The position numbers were made by a program, and so were the translations under genes. The notes below the pieces were generated by a model. It was not told the DNA's origin. It searched no databases and was given only the letters and a program-made list of their open reading frames with translations. This document shows, in pieces, positions 38,259 through 39,347 of a stretch of 53,056 nt of DNA. The stretch's first letter is position 1, and the number at the start of each line of letters is the position of its first letter. The DNA comes from Cyanobium sp. FGCU6 (lineage in GTDB: Bacteria > Cyanobacteriota > Cyanobacteriia > PCC-6307 > Cyanobiaceae), in contig JANWUR010000026.1 in the NCBI GenBank assembly GCA_024958655.1, positions 1 through 53,056 of the forward strand. The letters are read 5' to 3'.

Positions 38259-38750
38259 TCAGAGCAGGGCGTTGATGGCGTAGTCGATGTAATTGTTGGC
38301 GATCACGCCGGGATCACCCTGGATGCCGTGGTTGGCCTTGATGTAGTTGAGCGCCTCCACGTACCACGAGGGGGAGAGTTCGAAGGCGCGATTGATCTCG
38401 GTGAGGCCGGCGATCAGGTACTCATCGAGGGGGCCGGTGCCACCCGCCACCAGCGAGTAGGTGATGTGGCGGAGGTAGTAACCGATGTCACGGCTGCACT
38501 TGGCCTTGCCGCGGGCATCGGAGGCGAAGTTGGCACCCTGCTGCTGGGTGGTGTAGGGGAACTTGTTGTAAACGGCCTGGGCTGCTCCGTTCACCAGCTC
38601 GTCGGCGCGGGCGGTGAGCTGACGGGCCGCCTCGAGGGCGTTCGTGGCGCGCTCGAAGCGCCCGAAGGCCGCATTGAGCTCGGTGTTGCTGAGGTAGCGA
38701 CCCTGGGAATCGGCGGCGGCGACGGCCTCGGTGAGGGGAGTTTTGGACAT
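38259..38750 (-). CDS. cpcA: Phycocyanin alpha subunit, sulfur-poor form
   Basis: CpcA binds phycocyanobilin in phycobilisome rods. The 163-residue globin-like protein has the family motifs KTPLTEAVAAADSQGR, YNKFPYTTQ, DEYLIAGL and SPSWYVEAL, and the chromophore Cys at C85 in KCSRDIGYYLR. C85 is its only cysteine, and the initiator is its only methionine. Where usual CpcA reads RMVTYCLVAGGTGPMDEYL it has RHITYSLVAGGTGPLDEYL, so Met and Cys are replaced by His, Ser and Leu. This is the mark of a sulfur-starvation phycocyanin. It is co-transcribed with cpcB (75-base gap). No linker or lyase gene is adjacent. Confidence 0.96.
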   Translation of the reverse strand: MSKTPLTEAVAAADSQGRYLSNTELNAAFGRFERATNALEAARQLTARADELVNGAAQAVYNKFPYTTQQQGANFASDARGKAKCSRDIGYYLRHITYSLVAGGTGPLDEYLIAGLTEINRAFELSPSWYVEALNYIKANHGIQGDPGVIANNYIDYAINALL

Positions 38751-38825
38751 GGTGAGGAACGGAGAAACGTGGGAGGAGAGAAGGCGAAACGGTGAACCCT
38801 GAGGCCTGGGCTTGCGCTCGGGGCG

Positions 38826-39347
38826 TCAGCTCACGGCCGCAGCGGCGCGGTCGAAGTAGGTGCCGATCTCGGAGGCCAGCCCGGTGCAATCACCCTGGGT
38901 GATGCCGTTGCGGTCGAGCACCAGGGCCAGGGCCGCTTCCTTGATCAGGCGGATACCTTCGGCCACGGAGGCGCCGGGAACGCCGAGGGCCAGATACGTT
39001 TCGCGCAGGCCATTGAGGCAGCGGTCTTCGAGCACCGAGGCATCGCCCAGGAAGGTGGCGTAGGTGACGTAGCGCAGGATGATGTCGAGGTCGCGCAGGC
39101 AGGCGGCGATCCGGCGGTGGGTGTAGGCGTTGCCGCCGGGGGCGATCAGGGCCGGCTGCCGCTCGAACAGGGCGCGGGCCGCATCGGTGACCAGGCGCGA
39201 GGCGTTGGAGGTGATGCGGTTCACGGCGTCGAGCCGCTTGTTGCTGTCGGCCACCAGGGCCGCCAGGGCATCGAGCTGGCCGGCATTGAGGAACTCGCCG
39301 ACGGTGTCGGCCTGGGCCACCACCTTGGTGAAGGCGTCGAAGGTCAT
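38826..39347 (-). CDS. cpcB: Phycocyanin beta subunit, sulfur-poor form
   Basis: The 173-residue protein has the CpcB motifs NKRLDAVNRITSNAS, IAPGGNAYTHRR (N73, the usual methyl-Asn), LRYVTYATFLGDASVLEDRCLNGLRETY and SEIGTYFDRA. Chromophore cysteines are C83 and C154. C110 is the conserved third one. The initiator is the only methionine. Positions usually Met (around residues 19, 31, 80, 87 and 134) are Phe, Leu, Ile, Leu and Leu, and the usual Cys in DRACAAVS is Ala. ATG 39347 is preceded by AGGAG 9 bases upstream. The longer open frame is not CpcB-like. Confidence 0.96.
   Translation of the reverse strand: MTFDAFTKVVAQADTVGEFLNAGQLDALAALVADSNKRLDAVNRITSNASRLVTDAARALFERQPALIAPGGNAYTHRRIAACLRDLDIILRYVTYATFLGDASVLEDRCLNGLRETYLALGVPGASVAEGIRLIKEAALALVLDRNGITQGDCTGLASEIGTYFDRAAAAVS

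What the first reader, a model, noticed from the sequence alone, without database searches (positions are those of the whole stretch)
38259..39347. Phycocyanin purged of methionine and spare cysteine inside a sulfur regulon
Both CpcA (163 residues) and CpcB (173) contain no methionine beyond the initiator, and only chromophore cysteines plus C110 of CpcB. Positions that are Met or Cys in ordinary phycocyanin (for example RMVTYCLVAGGTGPMDEYL) are Leu, Ile, His, Ser or Ala here. A sulfur-sparing phycocyanin is known from Calothrix PCC 7601 (cpc3). In this window the genes sit between tauE and the cysR2/sulfate permease operon, with a large sulfate/thiosulfate cluster alongside, so light-harvesting remodelling and sulfur acquisition appear physically linked in a picocyanobacterium-like genome.
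Basis: partly seen in the sequence, partly recalled or inferred. Interest (0 to 1): 0.93.

Follow-up and report, generated by a model that had tools for sequence, protein, structure and literature searches.

The report
Low-sulfur phycocyanin beside sulfur-uptake genes
This picocyanobacterial genome carries a copy of the blue light-harvesting protein phycocyanin with no internal methionine and only four cysteines, lying beside sulfur-uptake genes, and the cell would likely use it in place of its ordinary phycocyanin when sulfur is scarce.

Summary
CpcA has no Met after the start and 1 Cys; CpcB has none and 3 Cys. I found 11 picocyanobacterial operons of this fully purged kind. In five genomes whose ordinary copy could be read, 9-11 of its 13-14 Met/Cys are replaced and none gained. 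With Met/Cys-rich columns removed, the 11 form one clade (100/94) inside picocyanobacterial phycocyanins, apart from Met-free phycocyanins of filamentous cyanobacteria; uniting the two is rejected (AU p 5e-65). So the trait likely arose at least twice. By a fixed rule, 9 of 11 lie within 8 kb of sulfur genes against 0 of 58 ordinary operons. All 11 carry a Crp-type box 16-17 nt before a cpc promoter element; 12 ordinary rows with that element lack it there. Box-like sites also lie before metY, bca/mgtC and cysE. I read it as a sulfur-sparing phycocyanin, likely switched on by a CysR-type activator; expression is untested. Caveats: this genome's ordinary cpcBA is missing at an assembly break, and CpcA alone is Met-free in five ordinary-type operons. 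The principle is known from Tolypothrix; the separate origin, linkage and box are the new parts.

The parts
38826..39347 (-). cpcB, low-sulfur phycocyanin beta subunit (173 aa, 0 internal Met, Cys 83/110/154)
38259..38750 (-). cpcA, low-sulfur phycocyanin alpha subunit (163 aa, 0 internal Met, Cys 85)
39562..39575 (-). cpc promoter core element TGACCCTTTGTGAA, also found before some ordinary cpc operons
39592..39607 (-). Crp-type box TGTGCCTGAGATTACA, 16 nt before the core element; a box of this type stands there in 11 of 11 purged pico operons and in none of 12 ordinary rows with the core
39638..39653 (-). second Crp-type box TGTGCCTGGAACTACA
39799..39814 (-). third, weaker Crp-type box TGTGGCTGAGAATGCA
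39717..39751 (-). 14-bp hairpin with T run inside the long upstream region; role unknown
   Evidence: consensus match
38208..38230 (-). terminator-like hairpin between cpcA and tauE; cpcBA is likely a two-gene transcript
   Evidence: consensus match
37409..38170 (-). TauE/SafE-family membrane protein
   Evidence: PF01925
36368..36937 (-). CysR-like Crp-family regulator (cysR2), overlapping the transporter gene downstream
34542..36371 (-). CitMHS/TrkA-C, DASS-like anion transporter (slc13)
24918..25487 (-). second CysR-like regulator (cysR1), candidate binder of the box
16261..16276 (-). box-like site between the divergent bca and mgtC genes (mgtC is followed by cysK, cysE)
6657..6672 (-). box-like site 55 nt before metY
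6728..31086 (.). sulfur island in the same window: metY, metX, rhodanese, YeeE-type sulfur transporter, cysK, cysE, cysW, cysT, cysA, cysR1, two sulfate-binding proteins, second metX; its near end lies 7 kb from cpcA
   Evidence: profiles for metY, first metX, rhodanese, YeeE, cysA, cysR1 and the two binding proteins; cysK, cysE, cysW, cysT and the second metX named by eye from translations

Best explanation
This is a low-sulfur phycocyanin operon (cpcBA) lying beside sulfur-acquisition genes, and its product likely replaces the ordinary, sulfur-richer phycocyanin in the phycobilisome rods when sulfur is limiting. Shown: both subunits keep the three chromophore cysteines and have lost every internal Met; the trait is conserved in 11 operons of one clade; 9 of them lie by sulfur genes; all 11 carry a Crp-type box (TGTR-N8-YACA exactly in 8, one or two end letters off in 3) at fixed spacing from a cpc core promoter element. 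Inferred: a Crp-family activator, most likely one of the CysR-like proteins encoded in the window, binds that box when sulfur is short and turns on cpcBA with metY, cysE and other island genes. Inferred: with no linker in the operon, the subunits assemble on the linkers encoded elsewhere (C12, C33). The cell then keeps its antenna while spending 4 S atoms per alpha-beta pair (initiators not counted) instead of about 8-15.
For: Composition. Same-genome ordinary operons hold 13-14 Met/Cys against 3-4 in the purged copy in G002 (PCC 6307), CCALA 015, CV13-4-11, GFB01 and V. limneticus; 9-11 replaced, 0 gained, each p <= 8e-6. One clade 100/94. Sulfur neighbours 9 of 11 vs 0 of 58, Fisher 1e-9; a tenth, L067, has only split cysE matches. 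Box: leave-one-out scores 9.2 to 22.4 in 11 of 11 purged operons, 0.5 or lower in 12 of 12 ordinary rows with the core element, two of these rows being one operon; Mann-Whitney p 8e-5 on 11 against 11. In the own genome 6 of 16 distinct box sites fall in this 53-kb contig, 1.3% of the genome, one of the six having served to make the pattern. Independent repeat: Met-free phycocyanin in a filamentous clade, 7 of 14 of those loci with sulfur genes in reach (five of the 7 one genus) and 0 of 9 ordinary or mixed loci.
Against: No expression data. S. lacustris (L124) has the purged operon with no listed sulfur gene within 8 kb. The 11 operons are kin, so the Fisher and Mann-Whitney values overstate independence; four share one arrangement. 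The boxes were picked by eye from these operons. Seven of 72 ordinary rows without the core element have some site of 9.2 or more somewhere in 450 nt (best 15.0 in L142, 12.5 before the WH 5701 orphan cpcB). The box resembles NtcA sites: a likely glnA site of this genome, TGTTGCAACCGCTACA, scores 6.1 and the Vulcanococcus box only 9.2. Intergenic enrichment of the box is partly due to base composition. In G002 (PCC 6307) the pattern is hardly in excess genome-wide (13 sites, backward control 10). Against the nearest Met-poor ordinary operons (FGCU52, WH 5701) only 4 and 5 replacements separate the window (p 0.01 and 0.002), so the saving here may be smaller. The closest public CpcA, P0001, 97% identical, has one internal Met.
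Confidence: 0.77

Rival explanations
1. The operon is a low-sulfur phycocyanin, but it is controlled by NtcA or another nutrient or light signal, and its place by sulfur genes is incidental.
For: The box is close to the NtcA type (GTA-N8-TAC, recalled). The CysR-like proteins and an NtcA-like paralogue share the stretch TRVTVT; NtcA itself was found but its helix was not printed, so its likeness is recalled. A probable glnA site of this genome resembles the Vulcanococcus box.
Against: 9 of 11 vs 0 of 58 sulfur neighbourhoods; box sites before metY and cysE; the G at position 8, kept in 11 of 11 boxes, is missing from the glnA site, which scores 6.1.
Confidence: 0.15
2. The Met loss is neutral lineage drift or a generally sulfur-poor proteome, with no dedicated low-sulfur copy.
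For: CpcA is Met-free in five ordinary-type operons; the window CpcA groups weakly with four of those (87/78, and 93/75 with WH 5701).
Against: Purged and ordinary copies coexist in the same genomes; hypergeometric p <= 8e-6 in five genomes; a filamentous clade emptied nearly the same sites; the other window proteins average 2.3% Met+Cys.
Confidence: 0.06
3. The copy is tuned for oxidative stress (no oxidisable Met, few free Cys) rather than for sulfur economy.
For: Removing Met and free Cys would also remove oxidation targets; V. limneticus has lost the free Cys109 too, and S. lacustris has only two Cys in CpcB.
Against: The linkage seen is to sulfur uptake and cysteine/methionine synthesis; stress genes were not searched for.
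Confidence: 0.06

Closest known systems
cpc3 low-sulfur phycocyanin of Calothrix/Tolypothrix PCC 7601 (Mazel and Marliere 1989, Gutu et al. 2011; seen here only as citations and one sentence each in PMC4424289 and PMC12269360)
   Same: Phycocyanin alpha and beta stripped of Met and non-chromophore Cys, as an extra copy beside ordinary phycocyanin (details recalled).
   Different: Filamentous Met-free phycocyanins form a separate clade (the PCC 7601 sequence itself was not in the tree). Here there is no linker in the operon, it lies by sulfur-uptake genes, and it has a Crp-type box. Of the purged copies of family f7 printed, L220, L226 and L227 are followed by linker-like genes and have no listed sulfur neighbours.
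Met-free cpcBA of Kovacikia minuta plasmid pA (L158), genome G110 (probably Scytolyngbya sp. HA4215-MV1, from contig length) and genus g42 (G145, G147, G284, G286, G359)
   Same: 0 internal Met; near cysK (L158, L218, L221-L224) and, in G110 and g42, sulfate-transport or rhodanese genes.
   Different: Filamentous clade; only two Cys in CpcB; separate origin.
CysR sulfur regulon of Synechococcus elongatus PCC 7942
   Same: CysR regulates sulfate-transport genes; deleting it also changed phycobilisome loss under sulfate limitation with 1% CO2 (PMC12016511, passages).
   Different: The passages I read name no low-sulfur phycocyanin; binding of CysR to the box here is not shown.

Membership tests
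C-phycocyanin alpha/beta | NCBIfam equivalog models above cut-off | tested here: met
   TIGR01338 280.9 (cut-off 269.45), TIGR01339 293.9 (279.3)
C-phycocyanin alpha/beta | Chromophore cysteines alpha-84, beta-82, beta-153 (usual numbering, recalled) | tested here: met
   CpcA C85, CpcB C83 and C154, each one residue later because of an extra N-terminal residue; C110 also kept
Low-sulfur phycocyanin (cpc3-type by function) | No internal Met, few non-chromophore Cys | tested here: met
Low-sulfur phycocyanin (cpc3-type by function) | Extra copy beside an ordinary phycocyanin in the same genome | tested here: inconclusive
   Own genome: ordinary cpcB only as its start at the end of contig C12, plus an orphan cpcB with 4 Met. 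Met in PCC 6307, CCALA 015, CV13-4-11, GFB01 and V. limneticus
Low-sulfur phycocyanin (cpc3-type by function) | Made when sulfate is low | not testable with these tools
   needs expression data
cpc3 of filamentous cyanobacteria (by descent) | Shares ancestry with filamentous Met-free cpcBA | tested here: not met
   union rejected, AU p 4.9e-65; groups were chosen after single-gene trees had been seen; PCC 7601 cpc3 itself not included
cpc3 of filamentous cyanobacteria (by descent) | Own linker genes in the operon (recalled) | tested here: not met
   PF00427 linkers only at C12, C33 and C47, none in the window. In L124 a linker-like gene does follow cpcA
CysR regulon | Crp-family regulator encoded nearby | tested here: met
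   PF13545 in both; the NCBIfam PtrA model hits below its cut-off, so the CysR name rests on context
CysR regulon | CysR binds the promoter | not testable with these tools
   box shared with sulfur genes is indirect

The most novel reading that the evidence does not exclude
Freshwater picocyanobacteria independently re-invented the low-sulfur phycocyanin and wired it into the CysR sulfur regulon: a dedicated Crp-type box was set 16-17 nt before the ordinary cpc promoter core, so that the antenna itself is one arm of the sulfur-starvation response. The same coupling to cysK-bearing sulfur islands arose separately in a filamentous lineage.
Probability: 0.6. Interest if true: 0.82.

Novelty: new variant of a known kind. 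Interest (0 to 1): 0.7.

Why it matters
Phycocyanin is among the most abundant proteins of these cells (general knowledge), so its Met and Cys are a sizeable sulfur store. A repeated, site-by-site removal of sulfur from it, tied to sulfur genes in lineages of fresh water, where sulfur is scarcer (PMC9361551, passages), is a clear case of element cost shaping a protein, with two origins to compare.

Tried and rejected
The element TGACYCTTTGT was first taken for a sulfur box. It also stands before ordinary cpc operons, so it is a general cpc promoter element of part of them. The Pseudanabaena PCC 7367 plasmid cpcBA is ordinary (CpcA 4, CpcB 5 internal Met). No tRNA and no Rfam match at gathering threshold in the window. 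No sigma-70-type match in 36300-41000. tauE as third gene of the operon was considered; a terminator-like hairpin lies between. Literature: the listings of nine searches of the open library showed no paper on a low-sulfur phycocyanin in picocyanobacteria; I looked at the listed titles and abstract starts, not at every hit, and most subscription papers are not held. PMC9361551 has no word beginning 'cpcB' in its main text.

Rows left out: one search dropped partial and unpaired genes (15 loci named in the script, besides incomplete pairs); one search dropped L147_4230 and L159_8003; one search dropped 22 rows (near-duplicates, plus L147_4230, L159_8003 and the two low-Met divergent operons L075 and L080). 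One search counted only operons with both genes near full length, so L085 (Met-free CpcA at a contig end, no cpcB) is not among the 11. The strict rule scores L067 as without sulfur neighbour. Of the 366 relatives only the best 80 were kept; of the matching genomes (109 of 386) only 30 loci were read.

Full report
What is there. On the minus strand at 38259-39347 lie cpcB (38826-39347) and cpcA (38259-38750). CpcA has 163 residues, no Met after the initiator and one Cys (85); CpcB has 173, none, and three Cys (83, 110, 154). Both pass the NCBIfam phycocyanin cut-offs. Downstream, after a terminator-like hairpin (38230-38208), come tauE, cysR2 and a CitMHS/TrkA-C anion transporter. Upstream is about 1.5 kb without an evident gene, then an amylase-like gene (by eye). 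A large sulfur island (metY, metX, rhodanese, YeeE, cysK, cysE, cysWTA, cysR1, two sulfate-binding proteins) fills about 6.7-31 kb (some names by eye).

The rest of this genome. The assembly has 4.07 Mb in 69 contigs. The window's is its only cpcA. There is an orphan cpcB with 4 Met at C42, beside an ammonium-transporter-like gene (by eye). Contig C12 carries two rod-linker genes and a cpcD-like gene (by eye) and ends at ...AGGAGCTAATCAATGTT. Its last 700 nt match the region before ordinary cpcB in L063 (82% over 726 nt), ending two bases after the ATG; its last 56-65 nt also match before ordinary cpcB in L072, L073, L074, L077 and L078. In several relatives the ordinary operon is in tandem copies. 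I infer that the ordinary cpcBA exists here but was lost at a repeat. Its Met count is unknown. If it is like L063 its CpcA is also Met-free, and the saving would be about 4 residues.

How common and how specific. Of 42 genomes of the genus, 28 have a CpcA match at E 1e-30 or better. Eight have the fully purged pair: G000, G002, G003, G005, G015, G026, G029, G032. The named-genome scan, which kept the best 80 of 366 relatives, adds V. limneticus LL, Synechococcus sp. GFB01 and an S. lacustris MAG, making 11. Contig lengths tie G003 to CCALA 015, G015 to CV13-4-11 and G005 to CACIAM 14, and G002 to Cyanobium gracile (strain PCC 6307 recalled). Five operons have a Met-free CpcA but a CpcB with 3-5 Met. 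Ordinary pairs hold 10-15 S atoms, mean 13.1, initiators not counted; this set is mostly picocyanobacterial with some filamentous rows. Purged pairs hold 3-4. Same-genome comparisons give 9-11 of 13-14 replaced, 0 gained, p 4e-7 to 8e-6 (five pico genomes and one filamentous, the latter 10 of 13). For the window against G018, WH 5701 and G002 ordinary operons: 4 of 8, 5 of 9 and 9 of 13, p 0.01, 0.002 and 2e-5.

Public proteins. Of the best 120 hits each, after trimming N-terminal extensions, Met-free are 32 for the window CpcA, 98 for the Kovacikia CpcB and 23 for the window CpcB. The nearest CpcA, P0001, has one internal Met. Among the 30 loci read of the phylum search with the Kovacikia CpcA, 12 have both matched genes Met-free (matches, not full genes).

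Two origins. Columns with Met or Cys in 15% or more of rows were removed before tree building. CpcB alone: the 11 form a clade at 95/85. CpcA alone: ten cluster with three others at 94/81 and the window falls weakly with Met-free-CpcA ordinary operons at 93/75, a result against a clean CpcA clade. Joint tree: the 11 form a clade at 100/94 within picocyanobacteria; 11 filamentous rows, one with a single Met, form a clade at 90/69. Uniting both is rejected, p 4.9e-65, with the groups named after earlier trees had been seen.

Neighbours. With a fixed list of sulfur genes from the window, 8 kb either side, 9 of 11 purged pico operons have at least one and 0 of 58 ordinary ones do (45 of the 58 have 10 kb or more of flank; the 58 include some filamentous ones); Fisher 1e-9. 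The five Met-free-CpcA operons have none. L067 has only split cysE matches; L124 has none. Layouts differ: cysK/cysE with or without metY; tauE with chrA, metX and sulfate-binding genes; slc13 with sulfate-binding and cysA genes. Filamentous: L218, L221-L225 and L158, 7 of 14 purged loci (L230 among the 14 has one Met), have listed sulfur genes, the five of genus g42 being one lineage and L225 showing only a rhodanese on a 4.5-kb contig. 0 of 9 ordinary or mixed loci do: L231-L237, the second copy in L220, and L159.

Promoter. All 11 purged pico operons share the cpc core element TGACYYTTTGT, and 16-17 nt before it a Crp-type box: TGTR-N8-YACA exactly in 8 of 11, with G2, T3, G8, A14 and C15 in 11 of 11. 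Leave-one-out scores are 9.2-22.4; 12 ordinary rows with the core (two from one operon) score 0.5 or less in the 40 nt before it. Of 72 ordinary rows without the core, 7 have a site of 9.2 or more somewhere in 450 nt on either strand, best 15.0. The sites were picked by eye from these operons, and the operons are kin. Across the 11 loci, besides the 10 main boxes over threshold, I count 21 distinct intergenic hits in 47.0 kb against 8 distinct coding hits in 182.2 kb (my count from the list, whose own row totals are 38 and 9); base composition accounts for part of that. Some are second boxes before cpcB, others lie before cysE (G003, G032, G029), metY and bca/mgtC (window), fad-pdo (GFB01), chrA (Vulcanococcus); some have no gene start close by. 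Own genome: 16 distinct sites with at most one mismatch, 6 in this contig, one of them used to make the pattern and two more in the same promoter; backward-pattern control 4. G002: 13 sites, control 10, but the two exact ones lie before the purged cpcB and 83 nt before a chrA-like gene next to a metX-like gene. A CysR-type regulator is the favoured binder; NtcA remains possible.

Reading. I take this as a low-sulfur phycocyanin swapped in under sulfur limitation. The composition, coexistence in relatives, clade, linkage and box are shown; the regulator, the induction and the use of shared linkers are inferred. Against known cases it works like cpc3 of Tolypothrix PCC 7601, of which I saw a sentence and citations (PMC4424289, PMC12269360), but by descent it is separate from the filamentous Met-free clade. 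PMC9361551 (passages) reports CysWT sulfate transport in 38 of 67 freshwater picocyanobacteria and in no marine ones, and that sulfur is scarcer in fresh water, which fits.

Noticed in passing
G000:C42:46787-47278 (L016, L004); L064:676, L066:17151, L069:1-257 (cut), L172, L175, L181, L183: An orphan cpcB without a paired cpcA in the stretch read, with 3-6 Met, recurs in these genomes, in three of them within about 10 kb of the purged operon. Its role is unexplained; some may be ordinary operons with unread partners.
   Followed up: partly
window 6728-8041, 26321-27382, 37409-38170, 3514-4182: Other island proteins are also Met/Cys-poor: MetY about 1 internal Met and no Cys in 437 aa, SbpA1 about 1 and none in 353, TauE about 1 and none in 253, the 222-aa protein none (percentages). 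Whole-island sulfur thrift is possible.
   Followed up: no
L075 (G029:C60) and L080 (G034:C80): A divergent, Met-poor phycocyanin pair (CpcA/CpcB internal Met 1/1 and 1/3) on a long branch, with none of the window's sulfur genes matched nearby.
   Followed up: no
window 12598-14877: Fusion of an FAD/NAD(P)-binding domain (PF13454) with a metallo-beta-lactamase domain that looks like a persulfide dioxygenase (by eye).
   Followed up: no
window 39717-39751: Strong hairpin with T run on the minus strand about 370 nt before cpcB, among the Crp-type boxes; could end a small RNA or act as an attenuator.
   Followed up: no
L063/L081, L084, L071/L089, L090, L091: Ordinary-type operons whose CpcA is Met-free while CpcB keeps 3-5 Met; gene conversion from the purged copy or a half-way state.
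   Followed up: partly
L221-L224 (genus g42): A filamentous-clade sulfur island with cadD, cysR, mgtC, cysK, purged cpcBA, rhodanese and (in three of four) sulfate-binding genes, much like the gene set of the window.
   Followed up: partly
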